64,000 bases of DNA. It comes from Spirochaetota bacterium (GTDB taxonomy: Bacteria; Spirochaetota; Brachyspiria; Brachyspirales; JACRPF01). The stretch lies in contig JBBTBY010000013.1 of the NCBI GenBank assembly GCA_038043445.1, positions 48,454 to 112,453 of the forward strand. Reading direction: 5' to 3'. Below the pieces are notes generated by a model. That model did not search any database. It was not told where the DNA came from and was given only the letters and a program-made list of their open reading frames with translations. Every line of letters begins with the position of its first letter. Within the stretch, counting starts at the first letter, position 1. Of this stretch, positions 29,682 to 59,272 are shown in pieces. A program made the position numbers and the translations under genes.

Positions 29682-29713
29682 ATAGAACAAGGGCTCATGA
29701 GCCCTTGTTCTAT
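29682..29713. terminator. Perfect 32-bp palindrome after typA, probable transcription terminator
   Basis: Half-site ATAGAACAAGGGCTCA is followed by its exact complement, giving a 16-bp stem without a spacer. There is no long T-run, only TTGTTCTAT. The inner 22 bp are identical to the hairpin after tsf at 59245-59272, which has a proper T-run. Confidence 0.7.
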
Positions 29714-36042: not shown

Positions 36043-37086
36043 ATGAGAAAAGTGAAGTTCGGGATCATCGGCACCGGCGCTATTGCGCAGATACACGCAA
36101 AGGCGCTTTCGCTCTGCGAGAACGCTGAGCTCGTCCTTGTCTACGACAAAGTGACCGAGCGCGCAGCAGCATTCGCCGCACAGCACGGCTGCCGCGCGGT
36201 TGCAGAATATGAGGAATTCCTCGCATCCGAGATAGAAGCGGTGACCATCGCGACACCGAGCGGGCTGCACGGCGAAGTGGCGATACCCGCGGCACGCGCC
36301 GGCAAGCACATACTTTGCGAGAAACCGCTCGAAGTGACCGTGAGCAAGACCAACGAGCTCGTGCGCGTCTGCGAGAGCAGCAATATACGGCTCTCCGCGG
36401 TGTTCCAGTCGCGCTTCAGCCGCTCGGTGCAGATGATACGCAAAGCGGTGGACGAAGGGCGTTTCGGGCAGCCGGTGCTCGCTGCCGCAAGCGTGCGCTG
36501 GTTCCGTACGCCGGAATACTACGGGAATGCCACCTGGCGCGGGACATGGGCGCTCGACGGCGGCGGTGCGCTCATGAACCAGGGCATTCACACCGTGGAC
36601 CTTCTGCTCTATTTCAACGGCGACGTATCGGAAGTGACCGGACGCATCGCGCGGCTTTTGCACCGGAATATCGAGGTCGAGGATACAGTGGTCGCCATGC
36701 TCAAATTCAAGAACAATTCGCTCGGCACCATCGAGGCGAGCACGGCCTGTGCGCCCGGATTCCCGCGCCGTGTCGAGCTCTCGGGCACCGACGGCAGCGT
36801 TCTGCTTGAGGACGACAAGATCATTCGCTGGCAGTTCAAAAAAGAATTGCCCGGGGATGACGAGATCCGCAGGATAGGTCTTGCGGGCGAGGGTATGTAC
36901 GGCGGCTCGGGCGACCCCGCGGCGATATCGTACGAAGGTCACCGGCGCCAGATAGCCGAACTCGCCGATGCGATACTGAACGCGCAGCATCTTACTACGC
37001 CGGGGGCGGAAGGCAAACGGGCGGTGGAGCTCATCTGCGCGGTGTATGAATCAGCACGCACCGGCACGACGATCAAATTCCTTTGA
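36043..37086 (+). CDS. Gfo/Idh/MocA-family sugar oxidoreductase
   Basis: 347 residues. The N-terminal Rossmann motif is KFGIIGTGAIAQIHAKALS (GxGxxA), and the family motif EKPLEVTV (EKP) follows near residue 95. The dimerisation domain includes WRGTWALDGGGALMNQGIHTVD (in parts), with the Gly-rich segment and the conserved His of the active site. It should oxidise or epimerise a sugar or inositol with NAD(P). The downstream glycosyltransferase start overlaps its stop (TGATG), so the two are coupled. Confidence 0.93.
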   Translation: MRKVKFGIIGTGAIAQIHAKALSLCENAELVLVYDKVTERAAAFAAQHGCRAVAEYEEFLASEIEAVTIATPSGLHGEVAIPAARAGKHILCEKPLEVTVSKTNELVRVCESSNIRLSAVFQSRFSRSVQMIRKAVDEGRFGQPVLAAASVRWFRTPEYYGNATWRGTWALDGGGALMNQGIHTVDLLLYFNGDVSEVTGRIARLLHRNIEVEDTVVAMLKFKNNSLGTIEASTACAPGFPRRVELSGTDGSVLLEDDKIIRWQFKKELPGDDEIRRIGLAGEGMYGGSGDPAAISYEGHRRQIAELADAILNAQHLTTPGAEGKRAVELICAVYESARTGTTIKFL

Positions 37087-38119: not shown

Positions 38120-38884
38120 CTATACGCCCATATCGCCGCCGCGGCGACGGTAATGGAGCGGTGATACGCCTATCATCTGCTTGAATGTCCTGCTGAAATG
38201 ATACTGGTCGGCGAAACAGAAGCGTTCCGCGATATCGGCTATCGGCATATCCGTACGGGAGAGGAGCCCGCAGGCGGCCTCGACCTTCAAACGCGTGAAA
38301 TACTTCATCGGCGAAAGACCGGTCGTCTTGCGGAACACGCGTATGAAATAGGAACTGTCAAGACCCGCACGACGTGCGAGCGCGGCAAGGCTCGTACGCT
38401 GCGTGAGCGAACGGTGGAGTACTGCGAGCGCTTCCTCGATGCGCGGCTCGGCGGCGAACATCCGTGATGCATCATCGCCGAGGCTGTAGAGGAACGATAT
38501 GAACAGATGGATGCCGGAGAGCGCGGTCATCCGTGTCGATGATGACGCCTTCATGCGCACCGTTTCAAAGAAGAAGCGCTTCCCTTCACCGAGATCGAAC
38601 GATCGCTTTGCGAGGAGCGTATCGATATGTCCCTTAAGCTCGCGTTCCTCCGCATCGAGCGAGAAGAGTATGAGGTACTGCACGAGCGTGCGGCGTTCGT
38701 CATAGATGACCGTATGCGATTCATAGGGTGCGGTGAAGAACGAACTGCCGGGTGTCAGCGATCGGACAGTGCCGCGCATGGACACGGAACAGTCACCGGA
38801 AACGATGTAACGTAATTCATAGGCGTCATGGAAATGGGCGTTGCGTGAGGCGCCTTCGTACATAACGATGCGCTGTATCTTCAT
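38120..38884 (-). CDS. AraC-family transcriptional regulator
   Basis: 254 residues. A cupin N terminus (HFHDAYELRYIVSGDCSVSM and SSFFTAPYESHTVIYDE) precedes the AraC double helix-turn-helix (TSLAALARRAGLDSSYFIRVFRK in parts, and MPIADIAERFCFADQYHFSRTFKQMIG in parts). It starts 9 nt after the stop of a small unknown gene and is probably co-transcribed from the promoter at 39207-39235. It is convergent with the glycosyltransferase gene. Its targets are not evident. Confidence 0.9.
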   Translation of the reverse strand: MKIQRIVMYEGASRNAHFHDAYELRYIVSGDCSVSMRGTVRSLTPGSSFFTAPYESHTVIYDERRTLVQYLILFSLDAEERELKGHIDTLLAKRSFDLGEGKRFFFETVRMKASSSTRMTALSGIHLFISFLYSLGDDASRMFAAEPRIEEALAVLHRSLTQRTSLAALARRAGLDSSYFIRVFRKTTGLSPMKYFTRLKVEAACGLLSRTDMPIADIAERFCFADQYHFSRTFKQMIGVSPLHYRRRGGDMGV

Positions 38885-39472: not shown

Positions 39473-39501
39473 TTGACTTCTGAGGGTAATATGACTATAT
39501 T
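39473..39501 (+). promoter_or_regulatory. Promoter of the seven-gene sugar operon
   Basis: -35 TTGACT (39473-39478), 17-nt spacer, -10 TATATT (39496-39501). The ATG of the first gene is at 39541, with AAGGAG upstream. The -10 and the predicted start site are covered by a 20-bp palindrome. Confidence 0.7.
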
Positions 39502-39516
39502 GTATCGATACAATAT
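39497..39516. promoter_or_regulatory. 20-bp palindromic operator over the -10 of the sugar operon
   Basis: Perfect palindrome ATATTGTATCGATACAATAT. The core TTGTATCGATACAA resembles sites of GntR-family repressors. It overlaps the -10 element, so bound protein would block transcription. No GntR-type gene is in the window; the regulator must be encoded elsewhere. Confidence 0.65.
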
Positions 39517-39540: not shown

Positions 39541-40575
39541 ATGGCCATCCGGGAAACGGCGATCAGTTACTACGGGATGTCATATGTAGAGCATGCCGAG
39601 CGGGATTTCGCTGAAATGGTGGGTCACGGCTGCACCACGGTGATACTCGCCATAACCGAATTCGACCTCGATTTCTGGTCCCCCTCGATACCGAAGATAG
39701 TCGATGCGGCGAAGAAAAAAGGGCTGCGCGTGCTCCTTGACCCCTGGGGTATCGGCAAGTATTTCGGGGGTGAACAGGTAAGTCTTTTCCTGCAGAACAA
39801 CATCCATCACCGGCAGGTATCGGCCTTCACCGGCGAAACGCTCCCGCATGCCTGTTTCAACACGAATTCCTTCCGCGATTACTTCCGCAATTTCTGTCTC
39901 AAGCTCGCCCGTGAGACCGATGCCGACGGCTTTTTCTGGGATGAGCCGCATTACGCCCTCCCGAAATCCTACGCATCCATCACCGGCGGCGCGGGTGACG
40001 ACTGGGCCTGCCGCTGCCCCGAATGCATGAAGAAATTCGAAGCGTATTACGGATATGAGATGCCGCGCATCATGAACGACGATGTAAAGCAGTTCCGCTG
40101 GCGAGAGGCGCTTTTCATCCTTGAAGATACATCGCGTCTTATAAAACAGATCAACCCGAAGTCGGAGATAACCTGCTGCGTTCACGCGACGATGAACACC
40201 TATTATGTCACCGAGCAGCGCGGGTATGATAATTGGGATATGGTCGCTTCATCGCCGTATTTCGATGTGTTCTCAACGACCATCATTGCGTGGGAACTGC
40301 CGATGCGTTTTTTCCGCGAGATAACCGCGCGGACGGTCGCTGCGGCGAAGAAATACAATAAGAAGTCCGAGCGCTGGATAATGAACTATTTCAAACAGCC
40401 GGAGGATTTTAAGCAGATGGACGAGGTCGTCGATCTTTACGCCACGCTCGGTACCGACCGCCTGGCTGCCTGGACATATCGCGGCGGTTACGGCACATCG
40501 CTTGCCGCGCCGGATGCGCTGAAACTCTGGGATCGCCTCGGTGAGAACTATAAACGCGTACTGAAAAGAAAATAG
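39541..40575 (+). CDS. TIM-barrel glycoside-hydrolase-like protein
   Basis: 344 residues. The ATG at 39541 is chosen because AAGGAG ends 6 nt upstream; earlier in-frame starts overlap that site. There is no signal peptide, so the protein is cytoplasmic. Segments such as GCTTVILAITEFDLDFWSPS, ADGFFWDEPHYALPKSYAS and RWIMNYFKQPEDFKQMDEV are arranged as in (beta/alpha)8 glycosidase-like proteins. The FWDEPH motif may hold a catalytic acid. A CRCPECMKKFEAYYG knuckle follows, as in many uncharacterised sugar-active barrel proteins. It is the first gene of the operon and probably acts on an imported oligosaccharide; activity is unproven. Confidence 0.75.
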   Translation: MAIRETAISYYGMSYVEHAERDFAEMVGHGCTTVILAITEFDLDFWSPSIPKIVDAAKKKGLRVLLDPWGIGKYFGGEQVSLFLQNNIHHRQVSAFTGETLPHACFNTNSFRDYFRNFCLKLARETDADGFFWDEPHYALPKSYASITGGAGDDWACRCPECMKKFEAYYGYEMPRIMNDDVKQFRWREALFILEDTSRLIKQINPKSEITCCVHATMNTYYVTEQRGYDNWDMVASSPYFDVFSTTIIAWELPMRFFREITARTVAAAKKYNKKSERWIMNYFKQPEDFKQMDEVVDLYATLGTDRLAAWTYRGGYGTSLAAPDALKLWDRLGENYKRVLKRK

Positions 40576-40590
40576 GATAGGGAGGACAGC

Positions 40591-41364
40591 ATGTTCGATT
40601 TTTCAAAGCTCGTAAAGACCGATGCACGATACATCGATGCCATCATGAAGAACATCTACGAGGTCGAGGAAAAGCAGATCGACAATATCATCAAGGCCGC
40701 ACAGATGATGGCGGACGCGATCAAGGAGGACCGGCTCCTCCATGTCTACGGCGGCGGCGGACACACTACGCTCGTCATGGCGGAAGTGTTCTTCCGTGCG
40801 GGCGGCTTCGCCTGCATCAATCCGATCATGGACATCGGCATATCGACCTGGAACAATGCGCTTAAATATCTTGAGATGGAGCGTACCGAGAATTACGGAG
40901 CGAGCCTCGTGCGCTACTATCGGCTCAAGAAGGACGATGTGTTCATCATCTTCCATAACATCGGCGTGAACCCGACGACCATCGATGCGGTGCTTGAGGC
41001 GAAGAAGGCGGGCGCGAAGGTCATCGCCATATCATCGAGCCATTGGCAGAACGGTCTTCCGAAGGATCATTTCCTACGGCACTCGAGCAAGAAGAATCTT
41101 TTCGAGCTTGCGGATATATGCATCGACGATTATAATCCATTGGGTGACGCTGTCGTGAAATTCGATCAGATGGACATTCCCATCGCGCCGGTATCGAACA
41201 TTGTTGATTTCTATATCGCGCATCGGCTGGAGATAGAAACGGTGAAGATACTTCTTGCCGCGGGCATAGAGCCGCCGATGTGGAAGAGCGCGAACGTGCC
41301 GGGCGGCGACGCGTACAATGCGAAGCTTATCGAGAAGTATAATTCACGGATCAAGAGTCTTTAG
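40591..41364 (+). CDS. SIS-domain sugar-phosphate isomerase-like protein
   Basis: 257 residues. A helical N terminus is followed by a SIS domain: HVYGGGGHTTLVMAEVFFRAGG is the phosphosugar-binding region, then VFIIFHNIGVNPTTIDAVLEA and AKVIAISSSHWQ. The layout matches SIS proteins of about 250 residues that bind the phosphate of a (N-acetyl)amino sugar and isomerise it or act as etherases. It begins 15 nt after the glycosidase-like gene. Cytoplasmic. Confidence 0.88.
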   Translation: MFDFSKLVKTDARYIDAIMKNIYEVEEKQIDNIIKAAQMMADAIKEDRLLHVYGGGGHTTLVMAEVFFRAGGFACINPIMDIGISTWNNALKYLEMERTENYGASLVRYYRLKKDDVFIIFHNIGVNPTTIDAVLEAKKAGAKVIAISSSHWQNGLPKDHFLRHSSKKNLFELADICIDDYNPLGDAVVKFDQMDIPIAPVSNIVDFYIAHRLEIETVKILLAAGIEPPMWKSANVPGGDAYNAKLIEKYNSRIKSL

Positions 41365-41421
41365 GCATGGATGGTGTTTCAGAAAGGAATGAAGTCGCAC
41401 GCGACATGCGGGAGTACGATA

Positions 41422-44247
41422 GTGAAAAAAGCATATACGCTCATCGCGGTATTGGCCGTTTTGACCATGACCGGTAATGCCGCGGATATCATCGCACGCT
41501 GGACATTCGATACGCGCGAGAATCTCACGGTGCACGATACGACCGGAAAACACAACGGGAGCATCGTCGGTTTTATCGATGCACTGGTGATAGAAAAGGG
41601 TATTGACGGGAATGCGTATCAATTTGACGAGGGTAAGGTCTACGTCGAAGTGCCCTCCGCTCCCGGGATATCGGTCGTGAACGATTTCACCTTTTCGTGC
41701 GTAATAAAACCCTTCGACGTCGCAGGATATCGGACCATTTTCTGGAAAGGCGACCGCAGGAAAAAGCCGGAGGCGGTGCAGTACTATCTCAATCTGCGCG
41801 ACGGCAAGGTCGAGTTCAAAGCAAAAAAAACCGACGGCAGCTGGGTGTCATGGGTCACTGTCGATGTGTGCACCTACCCTGAACGTTGGGCGGCAATAAC
41901 CATGACATTCAAGGACGGCATATGCGTTATCTACGTCAATGGCGTAAAGCGAAAGACAAATATCCCTCCCGATACTGCCGGGGGACTCTCGGAACTGGTC
42001 GCATGCGATCACCCGCTCTATTTCGGCACCGCGCAGGGGGCAGGAGGCTCGCCGGCGTATAATTTCCGCGGACTGATCGATGAGATCATGATACGGAACG
42101 GCACCGATATCGACGCGGAGATGGCGCGTATACCGGTGCTTGCCGCGACCATTCTTGCCGATACGCTCCGTGAAAGCAGCCAGGACATGCGCATGGCCGC
42201 AGATGAAAGCAGACGCGTTCTAAAGGAAATGGAGCGTTATAAGGCTTTGAGGGATAGTGTTGCCGCCCCGGTCATTTCCGGAGCATCATCAGTGAGGGGG
42301 AATTGTGTTGCATCACTTTCAGCGATCAATGAATTCAGCGCGAATGATCTTTCCGCGATAGCAAAGTCGGCCGGTGTGCAGGTACCTCCCGCTGTATCGC
42401 TGCCAACGCAAGCAGATGTGCGCACAGTGAAGGCATCGCTCGAGGACTTGGCGGTGTATGCAGAAGCGTTCTCAGCCCGAACGAAAGACCTTTCTTCTGC
42501 TGCGGCGTCCATCGCACGATCGTTCTCATCTCATGCGGATAACGCATCGGACGCAGCCGCGAAGATATTTGAATCTGATGAAACGATCCGCACATCCGTA
42601 TCAGCATTTCATTCGTCATACCGTGACTGGCTTCTGCAGACAAAGCGCACGGTCCGTGAGTCGCGGTATTTCGATGCGGAGGCGCTGTTCGCAATGCTGC
42701 CGGTCCACTCGGGCGTGACCATTCTTCGAACGCCGGATATACTTGGTTCCCTTACCGACGTTCCTGAGAAAGCGGTCATCACACTTGCCCGGAATGAATA
42801 CGAGGGATTTCAGCTGCTCCTGGCCCCCAACCCCGGCGGCGGTTCTGTCGATGGAGTGACGATGACGGTTGGTGCATTCACGCACAGCACGGGTTCAGGG
42901 ACGCTTACGGATATCGCTATTGCTCCCATGAAAACGATAGACAACAGTACAAGCAAAGCAGCAGTTCGATACCGCGGGCCGGTGTATGATATCATCAAGG
43001 ACGGGGTCGAAACCTATGCCATTCCTGCGAAGTCACCGCTTTGCGCGTATGTCCGTATCCACGCCGATGGGCGCACAAAAGCCGGGCTCTATCGCGGGAC
43101 TATCACAGCGGTAAAAGGCGGTTTTTCACGCACGGTGGCGGTAGAGGTGACCGTGTACGACTTCACGCTTCCGCAGAAGAGCGCGCTCAAGGTCGCGTTC
43201 AGTTTTTTCGAGCACTTCTACAGGAATTGGTACGGGTATACTGCGCTTTCCGAGGAACAGCAGCTTTCCGTCTATCAGTTCCTGATGAAGTACCGCATCA
43301 CGCCGAACAATATTTACAGCAAGGATGTATCCCCGTCCGTTGATATGCTGTCGAAACTGCCGGCCGCGAATTTCTGTACGCTCGGTTATTTCGCGTCAAA
43401 AAAACCGCTGTCAGATGAAGAACTGACGAAACTATCGCAGGAATACGGCGAAAAGCTTGCTGCATTGAAAGCCGCGGGAGTCGCAGAAAAGGACGCATAC
43501 CTTTATTGCTACGACGAGTTCGGTGTACAAACGATGTACGATCGCGATTCGGCACGCATGTTCTGCGAACGGCTTCGCAGGGACCACCCCGGCATAAAGC
43601 TGATGCAGACATCCGTGCCGGCGCCGCCCTTTGACAAATATTTCAATGTGTGGGTGCCGCCATTCGAGGTATTCGAACTCATGAAGCCGGAGTATCGCAC
43701 CGCCGACAATGAACTCTGGTGGTATTGGGTAAGCGCGCCCGATCCGTTCCCCAGTTTCGATCTCGGTTTCCCGATGCACAATTCGCGCATGCTCATGCTT
43801 CTCGGTTTCAAATACAATATTGAAGGCTGTCTCTACTGGAGCATAAATCGCGAGTGGTCGGACAATGTGAAGAATGCAGCAACATGGGTCGATGGTGAAT
43901 GGGACGGTCGGTACGTCAATGTGATCACCGGCGGGGCGAACGCGCAGTGCGGGCAGGGCAATATGGTCTATCCCGGCCCCGAGGGACGCATATGGCCGTC
44001 GCTCCGGTTCGAGAATATGCGCGACGGCATCGAGGATTACGATTATTGCGCAATGCTCAAGTTGCTTTTGGCGGAGATAAAAAGCGGTAAGCGCCCGGCA
44101 TTCGCTTCGCGCGTGAAGGAGATAGAAGCGCTCGTGGCGATGCCGGACGAGGTGATCAAATCTACAAGTGATTGGACGAAAGAACCGGCCGTGCTCGGCG
44201 CGTACCGCGAAAAGGTCGCACGCATGATCGAAACGATCACGAAATAA
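41422..44247 (+). CDS. Secreted LamG plus DUF4091 glycoside-hydrolase-like protein
   Basis: 941 residues from a GTG at 41422, chosen because GGGAG lies 7 nt upstream and the product then starts with a signal peptide (KKAYTLIAVLAVLTMTGNAA). Residues about 20-225 form a LamG/concanavalin-like domain (IARWTFDTRENLTVHDTTGK, YFGTAQGAGGSPAYNFRGLIDE). A helical spacer follows (about 250-430). The C-terminal 480 residues form a DUF4091/GH123-like region with CYDEFGVQTMYDR, GFKYNIEGCLYWSINRE and the conserved ending RFENMRDGIEDYDYCAMLK. GH123 enzymes act on N-acetylgalactosaminides. The enzyme is probably exported and cuts the substrate that the rest of the operon processes. Confidence 0.85.
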   Translation: MKKAYTLIAVLAVLTMTGNAADIIARWTFDTRENLTVHDTTGKHNGSIVGFIDALVIEKGIDGNAYQFDEGKVYVEVPSAPGISVVNDFTFSCVIKPFDVAGYRTIFWKGDRRKKPEAVQYYLNLRDGKVEFKAKKTDGSWVSWVTVDVCTYPERWAAITMTFKDGICVIYVNGVKRKTNIPPDTAGGLSELVACDHPLYFGTAQGAGGSPAYNFRGLIDEIMIRNGTDIDAEMARIPVLAATILADTLRESSQDMRMAADESRRVLKEMERYKALRDSVAAPVISGASSVRGNCVASLSAINEFSANDLSAIAKSAGVQVPPAVSLPTQADVRTVKASLEDLAVYAEAFSARTKDLSSAAASIARSFSSHADNASDAAAKIFESDETIRTSVSAFHSSYRDWLLQTKRTVRESRYFDAEALFAMLPVHSGVTILRTPDILGSLTDVPEKAVITLARNEYEGFQLLLAPNPGGGSVDGVTMTVGAFTHSTGSGTLTDIAIAPMKTIDNSTSKAAVRYRGPVYDIIKDGVETYAIPAKSPLCAYVRIHADGRTKAGLYRGTITAVKGGFSRTVAVEVTVYDFTLPQKSALKVAFSFFEHFYRNWYGYTALSEEQQLSVYQFLMKYRITPNNIYSKDVSPSVDMLSKLPAANFCTLGYFASKKPLSDEELTKLSQEYGEKLAALKAAGVAEKDAYLYCYDEFGVQTMYDRDSARMFCERLRRDHPGIKLMQTSVPAPPFDKYFNVWVPPFEVFELMKPEYRTADNELWWYWVSAPDPFPSFDLGFPMHNSRMLMLLGFKYNIEGCLYWSINREWSDNVKNAATWVDGEWDGRYVNVITGGANAQCGQGNMVYPGPEGRIWPSLRFENMRDGIEDYDYCAMLKLLLAEIKSGKRPAFASRVKEIEALVAMPDEVIKSTSDWTKEPAVLGAYREKVARMIETITK

Positions 44248-44264
44248 TCGAAAGGAGCATTCGT

Positions 44265-45011
44265 ATGGAACGCATCGTATTCTTCATTCTCGCGTCTGCG
44301 GCGCTTTGTGCGCAGAACCCCGCATTGTGGGTCGACTTTACCGGTGTTACGGGTGATTGCACTGATAAGGCCGGCAATGCTGTCATCGTCAAAGGGGCAT
44401 CGATAGCGGACGGCGCGTTCCGGAGCAAAAAAGGGAATGACTGCACGGTAAAGACGTCAGCGGCATTGAACGCGATGACAACCGAGATTGCCATCACCGC
44501 ATGGATCGCGCTCAAGACCGTCGATGAGAATTTCCAGACCGTGCTTTTCAAGGGCGATAGAAGCAGGAACCCGGAAGCCATCCAGTACGCACTATCCATC
44601 AATTATGGATATCCGGAGCTGAAATGGAAGGATGAAAAGGGCGTATGGCAGGGGTTCATGAAATCGAGCACGGACACGAAAACCGGCGCGGTGAAGAACG
44701 CGGTCCGGCTTGGCGTCGGAAAATGGCAGCATCTTGCTGTCACCTTCGCCAACGGCGCGATATGCGTGTATGTGAACGGGGCGCTCACCGAAAAAGCCCC
44801 GGCGAAAGAAGGCGCAAAAGCGTTCGTCGCGAGCGAGACCGATATCTACCCCGGCGCCATGTTCTGGACGACGAGCGGCAGGAATTATCACCAGGACGGG
44901 CTTATCGCGGATATACGCGTGTATTCATCGGTGCTCGATGCCGCGGCGATAAAGGATATCGTTTCGGGGGATGCGAAGCGAAGCGTAAACGCCGATATCG
45001 TGATAGAATAG
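44265..45011 (+). CDS. Secreted LamG-domain protein
   Basis: 248 residues; ATG at 44265 with AAAGGAG 9 nt upstream. A signal peptide (MERIVFFILASAALCAQ) precedes a single LamG/concanavalin-like domain (TEIAITAWIALKTVDENFQT, WQHLAVTFANGAICVYVNG, GLIADIRVYSSVLDAAAI). It shares several motifs with the LamG domain of the upstream 941-residue protein (FKGDRSRNPEAIQYALS here and WKGDRRKKPEAVQYYLN there), so the two domains are probably related by duplication. It has no catalytic domain; binding of polysaccharide is likely. Confidence 0.85.
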   Translation: MERIVFFILASAALCAQNPALWVDFTGVTGDCTDKAGNAVIVKGASIADGAFRSKKGNDCTVKTSAALNAMTTEIAITAWIALKTVDENFQTVLFKGDRSRNPEAIQYALSINYGYPELKWKDEKGVWQGFMKSSTDTKTGAVKNAVRLGVGKWQHLAVTFANGAICVYVNGALTEKAPAKEGAKAFVASETDIYPGAMFWTTSGRNYHQDGLIADIRVYSSVLDAAAIKDIVSGDAKRSVNADIVIE

Positions 45012-45037
45012 AAGAATTTTGACGGAAGGATACTTCC

Positions 45038-45907
45038 ATGGAAGCGATCGTGGCTAGAAAGCGTGCTGTCGTACTGACCCGGGATAAAGAACGTGCTATG
45101 AAATCGAAGGTGTTCGCGTTCTTCGACACTGACACTGCCGTTACCGATACACCTGAGGATGCGGATATCGCCGATGTCAGCGCGTCGGATGATGTGCAGC
45201 TCGCCCGCGCATTTGCACAACAGGTCAAGACGGTCATCGTATCGCCCGCCGTCGGCGCACAGCTTGCCGCTTCCGGCGAGAACACATCGCACTATGTCGA
45301 GGCGCATCCGCTCCGCGCCTGGGGCATCGTGGAAAAAGTGAAGCAGTATATGACCGCGAACATCCCCGGCGATATGACATCGATGCGTATATTCTGGGAA
45401 ATGCCGAAGACATATGCGAAAGGGAGAACGTCCTTCGCTGAGCGGCTGCCCGAGTTCATTGACATTGCCGCATATATTGCCGGCGTTCCTGCCGTGTCCG
45501 TACAGCTGCAGCAAGCGGGAACGAACGGCGTGTTCGGGCTTATCACGCTAGAGGGCAATATCGTCGCCGAGCTGACCGTGAACGACATGCTCCCGAATTC
45601 TCTTGCGCCGGTGCGGTTCTTGCATACCTATTTCACTTCCGGTGTAGTATCGAACATGCCGCTCTACGGGTTCGAGAACGATGAAGGAGTACTCATCGCC
45701 GACGACAAGCATGCTCGCCATGAGGTCAATGAGCATATGGATTGGGGCGGTACCGATGAGATCGACGATCTTTATTTCAGGATGATAGGACTTATACTCG
45801 GCGGCACGTATGGGATGCCGTGCGGCGGGAATGCTCTGCGATACCGAACGGCGGCGGAAGAAGCGCTGCGCACCGGTGAAGCGGCCGCGATAGGCGGTGC
45901 ACAATGA
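45038..45907 (+). CDS. Protein resembling the C-terminal half of Gfo/Idh/MocA oxidoreductases
   Basis: 289 residues. It has no signal peptide and no GxGxxG nucleotide-binding motif. The first 60 residues are charged and Asp-rich. The central region (HPLRAWGIVEKVKQYMTANI, TSMRIFWEMPKTYAKGRTSF, GVFGLITLEGNIVAELTVND) recalls the substrate or dimerisation domain of Gfo/Idh/MocA proteins. A complete member of that family is encoded 0.9 kb downstream, so this may be a partner subunit or a degenerate paralog. The stop overlaps the next start (ATGA). This assignment is tentative. Confidence 0.6.
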   Translation: MEAIVARKRAVVLTRDKERAMKSKVFAFFDTDTAVTDTPEDADIADVSASDDVQLARAFAQQVKTVIVSPAVGAQLAASGENTSHYVEAHPLRAWGIVEKVKQYMTANIPGDMTSMRIFWEMPKTYAKGRTSFAERLPEFIDIAAYIAGVPAVSVQLQQAGTNGVFGLITLEGNIVAELTVNDMLPNSLAPVRFLHTYFTSGVVSNMPLYGFENDEGVLIADDKHARHEVNEHMDWGGTDEIDDLYFRMIGLILGGTYGMPCGGNALRYRTAAEEALRTGEAAAIGGAQ

Positions 45908-46815
45908 GCGAACAATACATCGAAGCGCATGTGCACATGGACGCCTGGGATGCGGCGACGAAGCGGCGTATCCGCGAAAGCGGTGTTGCGCAGTACTGGG
46001 TGATGGATATCTCTCACCCGCAATTGAACACAAAGAATGCCGACAGGAAAACGATACTCCGTGCGGCACACGATATGCCCGGCAGGATAATCCCTTTTGC
46101 GATGATACAGTGGGGTGCCGATGAACGCCAGGTGGAGGCGTACTTTCGTGCCGGCTTTACGGGGCTTAAGGCCATAGTGCCCCCCAAGCCGTATAACGAT
46201 AATGCATACCTTCCCATCTATGAGGCGGCGGCGCATTTCGCAATGCCCATACTGTTCCACACGGGTATCATCGCGCACTCCAACGACACTGTAAAGGAAC
46301 CCCTGCGGCGCGGCTATGGCCCTGCGAACATGGAGCCCGCGTTCCTCGCAACAATAGCGGATATGTTCCCTTCACTTGAGCTCATCGGCGGGCATATGGG
46401 TTTCCCGTATACGGAGCAGACCGAGAACAATCTGTATTATTACCCGAACATACACCATGATATATCGGGCTATGTATCGCTCGAATGGCTCATGTCGGTG
46501 CTCGAAAGACGTGCATGCGCATACCTCGGCGGCGCACGATTTTTCCACGAAAAGCTTCTCCTTGCAACCGACCTTTTCATCGGCAATAAGAATTCGGAAC
46601 TGTGGGGAAAAGAAAAACGTGAGGCGTGGAGGCTCTTCTTCAAGTATCTCGCATACAATCATTCATGGTCGCTTGAAGCGGATAATATTTTTTATCGCAA
46701 TGCAAAACGGCTTATGGACAAAGTACAGCGCCGGCAGGCATCGATACGCGCACGGCTCAAGAGAAAACGCTCCGGCCCCGGCACAGCGATCGTAAAAAAA
46801 AGGGGTACACGATGA
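45904..46815 (+). CDS. Amidohydrolase-family (amidohydro_2) TIM-barrel protein
   Basis: 303 residues. Metal-site candidates are EAHVHMDAWD (HxH near the N terminus), ILFHTGIIAHSN, ELIGGHMGFPY and LLATDLFIGN (Asp), arranged as in the COG2159/amidohydro_2 family. Members hydrolyse or decarboxylate cyclic substrates, including lactones and aromatic acids; in a sugar operon a lactonase is plausible, since the oxidoreductase could produce a lactone. Start and stop each overlap the neighbours by 4 nt. The C terminus is very basic (RLKRKRSGPGTAIVKKRGTR). Confidence 0.82.
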   Translation: MSEQYIEAHVHMDAWDAATKRRIRESGVAQYWVMDISHPQLNTKNADRKTILRAAHDMPGRIIPFAMIQWGADERQVEAYFRAGFTGLKAIVPPKPYNDNAYLPIYEAAAHFAMPILFHTGIIAHSNDTVKEPLRRGYGPANMEPAFLATIADMFPSLELIGGHMGFPYTEQTENNLYYYPNIHHDISGYVSLEWLMSVLERRACAYLGGARFFHEKLLLATDLFIGNKNSELWGKEKREAWRLFFKYLAYNHSWSLEADNIFYRNAKRLMDKVQRRQASIRARLKRKRSGPGTAIVKKRGTR

Positions 46816-47945
46816 AACCGTTATCGATAGTGGTCACCTCATCGGCGAACCCGCATGTGAAATTCTACTATGAGGACCTCTCGCATACTGAACTTTTCAA
46901 ACTTGAAGCGATAACCGAGACCGACCCGGCGCGAATGGAATATGCCGAGGATTTCTTCCGCAAGAAAAACCTGCCCGTGAAATTCTATACCGATTGGAAG
47001 CTCATGCTCGAGAAACACCGCGATGTGGAGGCGGTAGTCGTCGGAAGCGATAACTTCCATCACCATGAACAGACGCTTGCCGCCGCCGCAATGGGGAAGC
47101 ACGTGTACAGCATGAAAGTACTCTCCATGGATGAAAAGCAGTGCGAGGAGATGATAGCCGCCTGCCGCAAAGCAAAAGTGGTGCTGCAGGTGGAGCTTGA
47201 GCTGCACTTCAATGCGCAGTACCGCGCCATGCGCGAGGCGATACGGAGCGGTAAGCTTGGAAAACTTTCATTGCTTTATGTGAGCAATATCTCGCAGTCG
47301 CCGATAACGTATTATCCCAACTGGGGCGATCCGGTGCTTTCGTATGGGAAAAAAGTATCGATACGTCCGGGCGAATCGGTATGCCGCGGCGGGGCGATCA
47401 CTGACCATCCGCATCCTTTCGATATCATACGCTGGCTGACGGGAAAGGAATTCAAGAAAGTGTTCGCGGTTTCCGGGAAGAACATGCGCTCGCAGCTGCT
47501 TGTCGAAGATCACATCGCCATTACCGGCGAGCTCACCGACGGCACTGCAGTGTTCATCAATCCGTCGTATTCGCATCTGGAAGAGCAATGCGATACGCGG
47601 CGCCTCTACTGGCCGAAATCGCTCGAGGTGCTCATCAAGGCCTACGGAGAGAAGTCGTTCATGGCGGCTGATTACTGGCATAAACCGGCGTATGTGCTTG
47701 GCGCGGAGCATCCATCGCCCAACCGTCTCATATTCGAGGGTGCGGGGCGTATCTCACAGGGATTCATCCCGCCCGTGGTGAGCGCTTCGCGATTCGTGAC
47801 CGAAAGCCGCTTCGGCAGTTTTTATGCCGCGGTGAGGGGTTTCCGGAGCGTAGAGAGCACCGGCGAGGACGGACTTGCCGCGGTGCGGGTGATGAACGCA
47901 TGCTATGGATCGGTGTATACGGGAAAGACCGTATCCTGCGTATAG
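46812..47945 (+). CDS. Gfo/Idh/MocA-family oxidoreductase, last gene of the sugar operon
   Basis: 377 residues. The N-terminal nucleotide-binding fold is recognisable (LSIVVTSSANPHVKFYYEDL) but the Gly-rich loop is atypical: SANPH instead of GxGxxG. Further family segments are EAVVVGSDNFHHHEQTLAAA, the EKP equivalent region (HVYSMKVLSMDEKQCEEM) and GGAITDHPHPFDIIRWLTG, with a His-rich active site. It probably oxidises a sugar derivative with a nicotinamide cofactor; the altered loop makes cofactor use uncertain. Downstream (47946-48052) no signal is seen. Confidence 0.85.
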   Translation: MKPLSIVVTSSANPHVKFYYEDLSHTELFKLEAITETDPARMEYAEDFFRKKNLPVKFYTDWKLMLEKHRDVEAVVVGSDNFHHHEQTLAAAAMGKHVYSMKVLSMDEKQCEEMIAACRKAKVVLQVELELHFNAQYRAMREAIRSGKLGKLSLLYVSNISQSPITYYPNWGDPVLSYGKKVSIRPGESVCRGGAITDHPHPFDIIRWLTGKEFKKVFAVSGKNMRSQLLVEDHIAITGELTDGTAVFINPSYSHLEEQCDTRRLYWPKSLEVLIKAYGEKSFMAADYWHKPAYVLGAEHPSPNRLIFEGAGRISQGFIPPVVSASRFVTESRFGSFYAAVRGFRSVESTGEDGLAAVRVMNACYGSVYTGKTVSCV

Positions 47946-48052: not shown

Positions 48053-50170
48053 TTATTTCGTATCTGCAAGTACGCCGTAGCAGTACACCAGGTTCGGATA
48101 TTCCACCGCATCGACGACAGCATAGCGTCCCTTGCCGTCGACAACGGGTACACCGCTGCGAAGCAAAGTGAATTGCGGGACGAAAGCAGTCTTTACCGGC
48201 ATCGGCACTTTGAATGATGTGACGCCTGCGTCTGAATTGGTTTCCTGCATCGTACCGTTTATCGTTATGCGCAACCTGCCCGGTGCGGTGAGAAAGCCGA
48301 CTACTTCGATGCTGTTCTCCGCTTCCCGTCCGCGGAATGTCCATTTCACTCCTTTTCCGGGATCGATGTCGGTGTGATGACGGCGGTACACGTAATGAAG
48401 CACATCACGGGTTATCTTCGGCTGCTCGCCGGTCTTGAACCACTGTATGTAGTATGCGTTCATATCATACGGTCCGAAGCCGATAGCGGTGGAAGGTTCC
48501 ATCGGCTGTTCACTGTAATCCGACCAGGTGTTGATGAAAGCCCAGTCGGCATTGTCGTTGATCGCGGAATTCCAGTAGGACCTGAGCGCCTCGCTGTTGC
48601 ACGCTTCGAAGAGCCAGCAGCCCCGTGTGCGCACATCCTGCGCTGCGATGGGAAAGACCGCCACGGTGGTAAGATCGCGGACGCGCGATACCCAGTCGAA
48701 TGCCCCCGGTGAGCGCGGACCCCAATGTGCCATGCCGTAGCAGAGCGGTGAAAAGTTCGTGATCTGAATGTAGCTGTTGAACTGCGCAACGAGCGCGATG
48801 GGCATGCCCAGATTGGAAAGCTCGGTCATCGCTCTGTGCCACCAGTTGGTGCTGTGCCGTTCGGTGAGCCACATGCTGAACACCGTGCGCCCGTCGGACA
48901 GCTTCATCGTCGCAGGATGTTCGATGATGCGCTTGACATACGGTGAACGTGCGTAGGCGATAGGATCGACGCCTTCATCGGATTCACCGTTAATGCCGCT
49001 TTTCTTTGCCGGCGAATAGACGGCAGGGACGATCTTGAATGAGGGATCAACGCGCGATGCCGCATCAAGCATGCAGAACGAGCGCATACTGAACGTGGTC
49101 CCGCCGCCTGCCGCAGTCGGCGCGGAATTGAAGTCGAGGAGGAATCCGTCATTGCCCTGCGCACGGGCGAGCCGCACTTCCTCCATCATCGCGACGATGA
49201 GCATTTCGGTCTTGTTCGTGCCGAAACCGCGCAGCGGTGTGCGGGGGAGCGGGCGCAGCAGAAGCTCGGTGCCTGCATCGATGCGGTCTTTTTTATTATT
49301 GGCAGAGGGATTCAGGACGGTACGCGAATACCAGTGCAATGCCGGGTCTTCATCGCTCATGCCGGCGGTGAAAATAGGATAATAGTACGTGAAGACTTTC
49401 CGTTTCGTGCGTGTGAGCGTTTCGATCGGCGCCTGTTTGAACGGCCACCACGCGGTACGCGGTGCGTCGACGCGTCCGGCTATCATCACATTGTCCACGG
49501 TCCATTCGCCGGTGCGTTCACGGCTCCCCGCGCTCAGAAAGTTGAGCTGAGAATAGGCGAGGAACGAAGCGGCGAACGATGTATTACTCTGCACACGTTT
49601 GGCGGGAAAGTCGGTGAGCGTGATTATGGTCCCGTCGTTCGTCGTTATCAGAACAGCGAAGTGATACCACGTGCCGGGAGTGAGCGCGAATAGCCGTGTC
49701 CGTTCACCGCCGGATGATAGGGAAAGCGAGTCGCCATCGCCGAAAAAGATCGATAATCCTTTCCCTGCGGCATCCTTGAATTCACAGCATTGATCAAGAC
49801 CCTTATCCGTTGCGTTCGTCCGGTACCTGAAGTCGAACCCGAGATAGAGGTCGCCCGCCGGGGGCGGCGTGAATGCGGTGCCGATCCCGGCGCCGGGACC
49901 AGCGGATGCCGATGCATCGCTGACGACCATCCCCTTGCCGGTGACCAGGTTGTTGATGAACGGCGATTCCCCGTTCGTGCGCAGTGAAACATCGACACCG
50001 CTTTCGATCTTACCGAGCCGCGTCCAGGGATGCGGCGGAAGTGCACCGACATACGCATCGAAATTATCGATCGGGAGGTCTTCGGTGCCGGTACGGACCT
50101 CGGCAGCGAGCATACTCGCGATCATTGCCGTAAGGATGATGAATACCGGAAAGGATGTCGATCGCTTCAT
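48053..50170 (-). CDS. Secreted GH71-like glycosidase with N-terminal carbohydrate-binding module
   Basis: 705 residues; signal peptide MKRSTSFPVFIILTAMIASMLA. Residues about 25-235 form a jelly-roll module (IDNFDAYVGALPPHPWTRLG, TPGTWYHFAVLITT, EWTVDNVMIAG) like that of the protein at 20605-21309. The catalytic-like region includes VFTYYYPIFTAGMSDEDPAL, GNDGFLLDFNSAP, HWGPRSPGAFDWVSRVRDLT and WAFINTWSDYSEQ. The last pattern is typical of GH71/GH99-type barrels. GH71 enzymes cut alpha-1,3-glucan. The assignment to GH71 rather than a related family is moderate. It is divergent from an AraC-type gene, with an inverted repeat in the shared region. Confidence 0.75.
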   Translation of the reverse strand: MKRSTSFPVFIILTAMIASMLAAEVRTGTEDLPIDNFDAYVGALPPHPWTRLGKIESGVDVSLRTNGESPFINNLVTGKGMVVSDASASAGPGAGIGTAFTPPPAGDLYLGFDFRYRTNATDKGLDQCCEFKDAAGKGLSIFFGDGDSLSLSSGGERTRLFALTPGTWYHFAVLITTNDGTIITLTDFPAKRVQSNTSFAASFLAYSQLNFLSAGSRERTGEWTVDNVMIAGRVDAPRTAWWPFKQAPIETLTRTKRKVFTYYYPIFTAGMSDEDPALHWYSRTVLNPSANNKKDRIDAGTELLLRPLPRTPLRGFGTNKTEMLIVAMMEEVRLARAQGNDGFLLDFNSAPTAAGGGTTFSMRSFCMLDAASRVDPSFKIVPAVYSPAKKSGINGESDEGVDPIAYARSPYVKRIIEHPATMKLSDGRTVFSMWLTERHSTNWWHRAMTELSNLGMPIALVAQFNSYIQITNFSPLCYGMAHWGPRSPGAFDWVSRVRDLTTVAVFPIAAQDVRTRGCWLFEACNSEALRSYWNSAINDNADWAFINTWSDYSEQPMEPSTAIGFGPYDMNAYYIQWFKTGEQPKITRDVLHYVYRRHHTDIDPGKGVKWTFRGREAENSIEVVGFLTAPGRLRITINGTMQETNSDAGVTSFKVPMPVKTAFVPQFTLLRSGVPVVDGKGRYAVVDAVEYPNLVYCYGVLADTK

Positions 50171-50183
50171 GCTATGCTCCTCA

Positions 50184-50208
50184 ATGATATATCATAAGTA
50201 TATATCAT
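50184..50208. promoter_or_regulatory. Inverted repeat between the GH71-like and AraC genes
   Basis: ATGATATAT and its complement ATATATCAT are separated by 7 nt. It overlaps the candidate -10 (TATACT or TATGAT on the minus strand) of the GH71-like gene, 14 nt from its start codon. A regulator binding site is plausible. Confidence 0.5.
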
Positions 50209-50219
50209 CTGCGGGATGT

Positions 50220-50248
50220 TTGCTTTCATTCCCTTGCCGCGATAAAAT
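50220..50248 (+). promoter_or_regulatory. Promoter for a leaderless AraC-type mRNA
   Basis: -35 TTGCTT (50220-50225), 17-nt spacer, -10 TAAAAT (50243-50248). The ATG at 50256 begins 7 nt after the -10, without a Shine-Dalgarno sequence. Confidence 0.55.
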
Positions 50249-50255
50249 ACTATAC

Positions 50256-51107
50256 ATGGTTCGACGACGATTGTCCGGCAAATTCCAGCTTGACCTCAGC
50301 GGCATGGCAGGTGCGGGTCTTCTCAATTTCTATGCGACGCGGGCACGGCAGATACGTCCGCCGACACCGCCGCATACGCATGCCGGCTTTGCTGAGCTCT
50401 ATTATGTAAGCCGCGGCGAGCAGTTCTTCGAGGTGAACGGCTATCCGGCACCGCTTCACGCAGGAGAGATGCTCATAACGTTCCCCGAGGACAGGCACAG
50501 CAGCGCCGGCCACCCGAATGAAACGGTCACATCATATATGCTCTGGATCGATATCACGCGACCCGATGGTTTTCTCGGGCTCAGCGGGGACGATTCGCGG
50601 CTGCTCCATCGCCGTTTCACCGGCATTACGAACCGGCATGTGATAGTGCCGGGGATCGAAACGTTGTTCCACGCCATTGTCGATGATGCGCACTCGCGCG
50701 ATGCGTTGGCGCGCCTTTCGATGCAGCAGCATCTCAGGGAGGTAGTGCTTCGCATCATCACTGCCGAGCGGGCGAATCGTCCGCGGCGATCCGCCGTCAT
50801 GCGTTCGGTATTGCGCTACATCGATGCGCACGCGCGGGAGGATATCGGCATCGGCACGCTTGCAGCACTCGCGCATCTGTCGGTGCCGCGCTTTCGTCAT
50901 GTGTTCCGTGAGACCGTGGGCCTTGCGCCGAACGAATACATCGTGCGGCAGAAGATAGCGCAGGCGAAGACGCTTCTTTATGACGGATCATCGGTCACCG
51001 ATGCTGCGTTCACGATGGGCTTTTCCTCAAGCCAGTATTTTTCCACCGTGTTCAAGCGGCTGACCGGGCAGATACCGCGCACGATAAAAGTTCGGACGAA
51101 AGCGTGA
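50256..51107 (+). CDS. AraC-family transcriptional regulator
   Basis: 283 residues from ATG 50256; the longer frame upstream lies in the divergent gene's region. The cupin N terminus is HTHAGFAELYYVSRGEQFFEV and EMLITFPEDRHSS. The double helix-turn-helix is IGIGTLAALAHLSVPRFRHVF and SSVTDAAFTMGFSSSQYFSTVF, ending KRLTGQIPRTIKV. It is divergent from the GH71-like gene and most probably activates it in response to a breakdown product. The start follows directly after a -10 element. Confidence 0.92.
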   Translation: MVRRRLSGKFQLDLSGMAGAGLLNFYATRARQIRPPTPPHTHAGFAELYYVSRGEQFFEVNGYPAPLHAGEMLITFPEDRHSSAGHPNETVTSYMLWIDITRPDGFLGLSGDDSRLLHRRFTGITNRHVIVPGIETLFHAIVDDAHSRDALARLSMQQHLREVVLRIITAERANRPRRSAVMRSVLRYIDAHAREDIGIGTLAALAHLSVPRFRHVFRETVGLAPNEYIVRQKIAQAKTLLYDGSSVTDAAFTMGFSSSQYFSTVFKRLTGQIPRTIKVRTKA

Positions 51108-59241: not shown

Positions 59242-59272
59242 AAAAAAACAAGGGCTCATGAGCCCTTGTTTT
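59242..59272 (-). terminator. Rho-independent terminator of rpsB-tsf
   Basis: Palindrome of 28 bp (59245-59272) with half-site AAAACAAGGGCTCA, followed on the minus strand by a T-run of seven. It lies between the tsf stop (59307) and the ssrA promoter. The inner 22 bp are the same as in the palindrome after typA. Confidence 0.85.

What the first reader, a model, noticed from the sequence alone, without database searches (positions are those of the whole stretch)
39541..47945. Uncharacterised catabolic operon: GH-like, SIS, DUF4091, LamG, half-Gfo/Idh, amidohydrolase, Gfo/Idh
Seven genes in tight order combine exported DUF4091/LamG proteins with cytoplasmic SIS, oxidoreductase and lactonase-like proteins. 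DUF4091 relates to GH123 (N-acetylgalactosaminidase) and SIS proteins often act on amino-sugar phosphates, so an amino-sugar glycan is a reasonable guess. The combination with an incomplete Gfo/Idh protein is not a pathway I recognise.
Basis: inference. Interest (0 to 1): 0.55.

Follow-up and report, generated by a model that had tools for sequence, protein, structure and literature searches.

The report
Operon for eating amino-sugar glycans
A seven-gene operon in an uncultured spirochaete looks like a pathway for breaking down an amino-sugar glycan, and several of its enzymes have lost the sites that normally grip a phosphate or a nucleotide cofactor, hinting at a route that does not phosphorylate the sugar.

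Summary
The seven genes are real, on one strand, with gaps of -4 to 26 bases, behind a promoter-like site with a perfect 20-bp palindrome whose 12-bp core stands at the same place in a second genus and nowhere else in that genome. Parts: TIM-barrel-like P1 (related to a GHL6 protein), SIS protein, LamG-GH123/DUF4091 protein with the DE motif, LamG protein, a Gfo/Idh relative lacking the nucleotide-binding half (P5), Amidohydro_2 (P6), and a Gfo/Idh protein without glycine loop or EKP (P7). P1-SIS is the conserved core (4 genomes). Amino-sugar catabolism is the best reading: SIS relatives adjoin NagA/NagB-like genes, and P6 paralogues adjoin NagB-like genes with GH20 close by. New is the SIS clade: it keeps five residues important in NagS but lost both phosphate-contacting serines; my screen found no sugar kinase or PTS in 24 of its loci (one ROK regulator; one annotated ROK fragment missed), against 12 of 14 loci of serine-bearing relatives; NagB-like neighbours lost TG[GS]TP (9 of 9 in the main cluster type). 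This suggests unphosphorylated, perhaps acidic, amino sugars. The contrast is one clade deep, NagS serine mutants stay active, and nothing is biochemically shown. New variant of a known kind.

The parts
39473..39501 (+). candidate sigma-70 promoter TTGACT-17-TATATT
   Evidence: consensus scan, 10 of 12 positions; 13 sites found in the region against a mean of 8.6 in shuffles, so weak alone
39497..39516 (.). perfect 20-bp palindrome ATATTGTATCGATACAATAT, candidate operator
   Evidence: core TGTATCGATACA also upstream of P1 in L002 (2285-2296); 1 site in the whole of G159 and 3 in G000, one of them inside a coding sequence
39541..40575 (+). P1, probably cytoplasmic TIM-barrel-like protein, no Pfam family, WDEP motif; related to a GHL6 protein
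   Evidence: AAGGAG before the ATG
40591..41364 (+). SIS protein (UPF0309/PRK02947, NagS relative) with HNIGVN in place of SxSGxN
41371..44247 (+). P3, probably exported LamG + GH123_cat (DUF4091) protein, DE motif; start may be 41389
44265..45011 (+). P4, LamG protein, 248 aa, probably exported; 37% over 251 columns to the N-terminus of the LamG-GH42 protein in the same slot of L002
45038..45907 (+). P5, Gfo/Idh relative lacking the nucleotide-binding half; catalytic-position His replaced by Glu/Asp
45904..46815 (+). P6, Amidohydro_2 metallohydrolase-like protein with HxH, H, H and D kept
   Evidence: absent from L002
46812..47945 (+). P7, Gfo/Idh protein without glycines in the nucleotide loop and with MKV for EKP
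38120..38884 (-). AraC-family regulator, divergent, candidate regulator

Best explanation
One transcription unit for using a glycan with beta-linked 2-acetamido sugars. SHOWN by sequence: gene order, domains, conserved operator core, P1-SIS as the conserved core, lost binding motifs. INFERRED: P3 (DE motif, substrate-assisted GH123-type catalysis) with the lectin-like P4 releases short N-acetylhexosamine saccharides outside; a transporter coded elsewhere imports them; P7, with the Rossmann-lacking P5 as non-catalytic partner through the C-terminal sheet, modifies the sugar; P1 cleaves a cytoplasmic glycoside; SIS opens the ring of the freed 2-acetamido aldose and isomerises or dehydrates it as NagS does, but on an unphosphorylated (perhaps C6-acidic) sugar; P6 takes the place of NagA or opens a lactone. 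Products would enter sugar-acid metabolism (HpcH/HpaI aldolase downstream in L002).
For: P3: GH123_cat above cut-off and DE aligned. SIS keeps NagS H53, R64, E94, D179, N228. SIS relatives of the same clade adjoin NagA-like and NagB-like genes in the 6 of 6 alphaproteobacterial plasmid loci read (families tested for L012) and NagA-like genes in the 7 spirochaete loci L051-L057. P6 paralogues adjoin a NagB-like gene in G000 and G159, with a GH20 gene next (G000) or about 1 kb off beyond an AraC gene (G159). P1 adjoins SIS in 4 of the 5 genomes with a P1 match: G000, G159, G044 and, across a contig break inside P1, G315; these four SIS form a clade (99/93). Haloarchaeal P1 relatives lie beside PIG-L deacetylase, aminotransferase, Rid and glucose-dehydrogenase genes in 4 of the 7 loci read. 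NagA and NagB equivalogs stay below cut-off in G000, G159 and G044.
Against: No activity is known for any of the seven. NagS homologues outside Streptomycetaceae (26-36% identity to NagS) had no or negligible GlcNAc-6P dehydratase activity (PMC12680351, section 10). GH123_cat matches only profile positions 220-323 of 324. The P1 model is poor (pLDDT 41) and Foldseek gave nothing at E <= 0.001. The GHL6 relative of P1 has DGP where P1 has DEP. P6 is missing from the L002 operon. No transporter or kinase lies in the operon. G011 has a weak partial P1 match but no SIS hit; none of the 7 haloarchaeal P1 loci read has an annotated SIS.
Confidence: 0.5

Rival explanations
1. Ordinary phosphorylated route: a kinase elsewhere makes HexNAc-6P, and SIS acts on the phosphosugar like NagS or AgaS; the serine changes are neutral.
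For: NagS S54A, S119A and S121A mutants stay active (PMC12680351, section 13). Five residues important for NagS activity are kept. R and K positions that contact the NagB phosphate (recalled) are kept in most NagB-like neighbours aligned.
Against: No PTS or sugar kinase found by my screen near the 24 N/H-type loci against 12 of 14 serine-type loci; the NagB-like neighbours lost TG[GS]TP as well.
Confidence: 0.3
2. A glycan operon for a non-amino sugar (galactan, uronate or similar); the DUF4091 and SIS hints mislead.
For: LamG-GH42 protein in the P4 slot of L002 and an HpcH/HpaI gene downstream there; Gfo/Idh genes; uxuA near two relatives.
Against: NagA/NagB-like neighbours of SIS relatives, NagB-like and GH20 genes near the P6 paralogues, DE motif of P3.
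Confidence: 0.15
3. Partly decayed operon: P4 is a truncated LamG-GH42 gene, and P5 and P7 are degenerate oxidoreductases without function.
For: P4 lacks the GH42 part present in L002, of which tblastn finds no trace in the window; P7 lacks GxGxxG and EKP.
Against: P5 is 77% and P7 88% identical to their orthologues, which show the same departures, P1 94%, SIS 95%; all seven frames are open.
Confidence: 0.07

Closest known systems
NagS, GlcNAc-6P dehydratase of Streptomyces (UPF0309, SCO4393; PMC12680351)
   Same: SIS_2/PRK02947 family; H53, R64, E94, D179, N228 kept
   Different: S119/S121 replaced by H and I, S91 by L; a spirochaete operon without a dmdR1-type neighbour noticed; outside the clade that holds NagS
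NagA-NagB GlcNAc catabolism
   Same: SIS relatives and the P6 paralogues sit beside NagA-like or NagB-like genes
   Different: no NagA, NagB, kinase or PTS in the operon; the NagB-like neighbours lost TG[GS]TP
GH123/DUF4091 beta-N-acetylgalactosaminidases (PMC11087588)
   Same: PF13320 above cut-off, DE motif
   Different: long LamG-bearing N-terminal part; only the last third of the Pfam profile matches
GHL6 hypothetical glycosyl hydrolases
   Same: profile match of P1 over 139 columns with a shared CxCxxC...YxxxMP stretch
   Different: P1 itself does not match PF14871; DEP against DGP
Gfo/Idh/MocA oxidoreductases, including the Bacteroides glycoside 3-dehydrogenases (NF058561, NF058563)
   Same: P7 matches the Pfam models and, weakly, these NCBIfam models
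   Different: far below the NCBIfam cut-offs (34 bits against 750 and 650); no glycine loop, no EKP

Membership tests
NagS (GlcNAc-6P dehydratase) | SIS_2 domain and PRK02947 model over cut-off | tested here: met
   119.6 bits (cut-off 27) and 231.4 bits (cut-off 135)
NagS (GlcNAc-6P dehydratase) | residues H53, R64, E94, D179 (inactive when mutated) and N228 (activity strongly reduced) | tested here: met
   alignment; mutant data in section 13 of PMC12680351
NagS (GlcNAc-6P dehydratase) | phosphate-contacting S119 and S121, and S91 | tested here: not met
   H, I and L in the window SIS
NagS (GlcNAc-6P dehydratase) | dehydration of GlcNAc-6P | not testable with these tools
   needs an assay; distant homologues failed it
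GH123/DUF4091 beta-N-acetylgalactosaminidase (P3) | PF13320 over cut-off | tested here: met
   42.8 bits, cut-off 23.1
GH123/DUF4091 beta-N-acetylgalactosaminidase (P3) | catalytic DE motif | tested here: met
   YDEF aligned with ADEI of 8k2f; kept in L002; motif described in PMC11087588
GH123/DUF4091 beta-N-acetylgalactosaminidase (P3) | complete catalytic domain over the profile | tested here: inconclusive
   only profile positions 220-323 of 324 match
Gfo/Idh/MocA (P7) | Pfam domains over cut-off | tested here: met
   three models over cut-off
Gfo/Idh/MocA (P7) | glycine-rich nucleotide loop and EKP motif | tested here: not met
   TSSANPHV and MKV; of 31 aligned sequences only P7 and its orthologue lack every loop glycine
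Gfo/Idh/MocA (P5) | Pfam domain over cut-off | tested here: not met
   no Pfam match
Gfo/Idh/MocA (P5) | homology of the C-terminal domain | tested here: met
   profile-profile score 40.0, controls at most 21.4; not seen with a 6-sequence profile
Amidohydro_2 (P6) | Pfam over cut-off and metal ligands HxH, H, H, D | tested here: met
   39.8 bits, cut-off 26.4; alignment; ligand roles recalled
Canonical GlcNAc-6P (NagA/NagB) pathway in this genome | NagA and NagB equivalogs over cut-off | tested here: not met
   best 154.2 bits (cut-off 225.65) and 89.6 bits (cut-off 236.9) in G000; the genome is 97% complete

The most novel reading that the evidence does not exclude
The window SIS belongs to a clade of the UPF0309/NagS family that has moved from hexosamine 6-phosphates to unphosphorylated amino sugars, perhaps 2-acetamido-hexuronates whose C6 carboxylate sits where the phosphate did. 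The NagB-like partner lost its phosphate loop too, so NagA-like, NagB-like and SIS would form a kinase-free amino-sugar pathway from Alphaproteobacteria to Spirochaetota, ending in UxuB/UxuA-type or EDD-type sugar-acid steps. The window operon would be the P1-linked branch of that pathway, aimed at a glycan.
Probability: 0.25. Interest if true: 0.75.

Novelty: new variant of a known kind. Interest (0 to 1): 0.52.

Why it matters
If the phosphate-free reading holds, a set of genes found from Alphaproteobacteria to Spirochaetota and annotated as 6-phosphogluconolactonase, glucosamine-6-phosphate deaminase, sugar isomerase and amidohydrolase is misnamed and belongs to a kinase-independent amino-sugar route. 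The window operon would also give two families without a function (P1, P5) an assayable context and a testable operator.

Tried and rejected
AlphaFold models of P1 (single sequence) and P5 (window plus L002) were poor (pLDDT 41 and 40); the P1 model gave no PDB match at E <= 0.001 and is not used as evidence. A PDB profile search for P1 gave one irrelevant hit; Pfam on the 11 P1 relatives gave Glyco_hydro_42 for one member (E 1.2e-4), too thin to use. Viral contigs gave no P1 relative, plasmids no P5 and only 4 partial P6 matches. P5 against six Gfo/Idh sequences gave probability 0.5% before the 29-sequence profile. The LamG-GH42 protein of L002 did not match the P1 profile above controls. Alignment A3 wrongly held a minus-strand ORF of L060; A7 replaces it. 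NagS itself was considered for the SIS and rejected as a membership claim. Literature: no paper naming this gene set turned up in the listings (SCO4393; UPF0309 or SIS domain; 10 of 134 papers listed, off topic; COG4821; sugar isomerase domain terms; 8 of 1,101 listed); open-access PMC only, so this is not proof of absence.
Full report
Setting. The window lies in a Spirochaetota genome (G000:C13:48454-112453, 5.13 Mb in 178 contigs, 97% complete). The phylum is inferred from the named relative L002/G159, 'Spirochaetes bacterium' JACRPF01, which is in the same family.

What is there. Seven genes read from 39541 to 47945 with gaps of 15, 24, 17, 26, -4 and -4 bases (the third recomputed for the P4 start 44265). 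A sigma-70-like site (TTGACT-17-TATATT) ends at 39501, and a perfect 20-bp palindrome (39497-39516) overlaps its -10 and precedes the P1 start. Among perfect palindromes in the window only two are longer and one other is as long. Its core TGTATCGATACA also stands downstream of a -10-like TATACT before P1 in L002. It occurs once in the whole of G159 (there) and three times in G000: here; in an intergenic stretch of contig C72 beside an IclR-like gene and a gene I read as L-fucose-isomerase-like (both by eye, not searched); and inside an ABC-transporter-like gene on C27. The 14-base form is absent from G044 (80% complete) and G315. The regulator is not known; L002 has a GntR-LacI type gene just upstream of P1 (by eye), the window a divergent AraC gene.

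Proteins. SIS: PRK02947/UPF0309, relatives 3cvj and NagS 9eol. P3: LamG and GH123_cat with DE aligned to 8k2f. In PMC11087588 (passages) Asp holds the acetamido group, Glu is acid/base, and 94% of 734 DUF4091 sequences keep the motif. P4: LamG, like the N-terminus of the LamG-GH42 protein in the same slot of L002 (37% over 251 columns). P5: Gfo/Idh relative from mid-Rossmann on; the catalytic-position His is Glu or Asp in the three members found. P7: of 31 Gfo/Idh sequences aligned (from the loci, plus one more window protein), only P7 and its L002/G159 orthologue lack every glycine in the loop, and they read MKV where the other 29 read EKP or, once, DKP. P6: Amidohydro_2 with its metal ligands kept. 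P1: no Pfam family; in an alignment of 11 members H18, E40, D134 and E135 are invariant, and its profile matches a GHL6-bearing protein of G044 (score 50.0; unrelated profiles and reversed sequences at most 23.9) that directly follows another SIS gene there.

Distribution. In 392 genomes sampled from the phylum P5 occurs in 3, P1 in 5, SIS in 24. P1 and SIS adjoin in four of the five genomes with P1 (G000, G159, G044; G315 across a contig break inside P1). G011, with a weak partial P1, has no SIS hit. Of 11 haloarchaeal plasmid records with a P1 relative I read seven loci: none has an annotated SIS; four carry PIG-L deacetylase, aminotransferase, Rid and glucose-dehydrogenase genes, two carry acid-sugar kinase and class II aldolase genes, one lies by a GH18 gene.

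The SIS clade. I aligned 38 SIS loci plus 3cvj and NagS. Taken were 20 of the 28 spirochaete places (left out: two from the same genus as L051 and L052, three weak matches, and three matches of about 40 residues) and 18 of the 42 plasmid records. Loci with SxS, or GxS and SxT once each, number 14; loci with N or H at the first serine number 24. A tree without the motif columns puts the 24 on one side of a branch (97/97), and the four P1-linked SIS, all with H, form a sub-clade (99/93). Within 7 kb of SIS, 12 of the 14 serine-type loci hold a PTS or kinase-family gene (not L136, L141); three of the 12 (L064, L137, L142) rest on a ROK-family match alone, and ROK proteins can be regulators. Among the 24 N/H-type loci the same search found only a ROK-family protein that matches the regulators NagC and Mlc best (L047), and the annotation of L131 shows a ROK protein of about 181 residues in a divergent neighbouring cluster that the search missed. 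Limits: several reference proteins were taken from the serine-type loci themselves; three N/H contigs are under 6 kb and others are cut; Pfam scans of 20 further neighbour ORFs found no sugar kinase but did not cover every ORF. Fisher's test gives 3e-8, but the tree allows one independent contrast only, so this is one event and not a statistical proof.

Second enzyme. The NagB-like protein beside N-type SIS reads [AS]APSQ where three NagB proteins (L135, L138, G315) read TG[GS]TP: 9 of 9 (L012, L013, L014, L017, L130, L131, L052, L053, L054). The two NagB-like proteins of L057 read ATGASQ and MAAPSG; those beside the P6 paralogues of G000 and G159 read PVGPTQ, and L128 reads PTGPID. That this loop binds the phosphate is recalled.

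Context of the clade. All six alphaproteobacterial loci read have NagB-like, SIS, NagA-like, a ceramidase-N-like protein and a sugar ABC transporter. Two of them, both Nitratireductor, continue into uxuA, one through a mannitol-dehydrogenase-family gene. Spirochaete loci carry SSF (L051, L055) or TRAP DctP genes (L055, L056), a GlcNAc-2-epimerase-family protein (L052), a GntR-FCD regulator (L056) and IlvD/EDD dehydratases (L056, L057). L002 has an HpcH/HpaI aldolase downstream. I read these as signs of unphosphorylated, possibly acidic, sugars.

P6. Paralogues in G000 (37%) and G159 (38%) adjoin a NagB-like gene; a GH20 gene follows directly in G000 and lies about 1 kb off, beyond an AraC gene, in G159. 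The NagB-like match there is clear to TIGR00502 (3.6e-25, 2.6e-23) but weak or absent in Pfam. G044 has P6 relatives of 58% and 53% and another Amidohydro_2 beside an N-type SIS. So P6 plausibly stands where NagA stands elsewhere; its absence from the L002 operon counts against an essential role.

Against the phosphate reading. NagS S54A, S119A and S121A stay active (PMC12680351, section 13), so loss of serines need not mean loss of phosphate. Homologues at 26-36% identity failed the GlcNAc-6P assay or were negligible (section 10), so the true substrates of the family outside Streptomycetaceae are open.

Verdict. What lies beyond the known is the combination, together with a SIS clade that appears to have left phosphosugars. 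I read the outline with abstract and sections 7, 10 and 13 of PMC12680351, passages of PMC11087588, and of other papers only search listings.

Noticed in passing
window 29682-29713 and 59245-59272: Two near-identical long perfect palindromes sharing AACAAGGGCTCATGAGCCCTTGTT, terminator- or repeat-like.
   Followed up: no
window 48053-50170 (-): A protein with a C-terminal match to Glyco_hydro_71 convergent with the operon, followed by an AraC-family regulator (49869-51107 +).
   Followed up: no
window 36043-37086: A second, ordinary Gfo/Idh protein with normal GxGxxG and EKP about 2.5 kb upstream, followed by a glycosyltransferase gene.
   Followed up: partly
L147 around 7721 (G000:C72:22719): The only other intergenic copy of the operator found in G000, between a large exported-looking protein and an IclR-like gene followed by a gene read as L-fucose-isomerase-like.
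   Followed up: partly
L002 12227-15806: Three BNR_2-matching (sialidase-like) proteins in a row downstream of the syntenic operon, the third below the Pfam cut-off.
   Followed up: no
L140 6980-7747 (Agrobacterium vitis plasmid): A SIS relative with His at the NagS E94 position, near a nucleoside phosphorylase and a carbohydrate-kinase gene, suggesting a nucleoside-sugar role.
   Followed up: no
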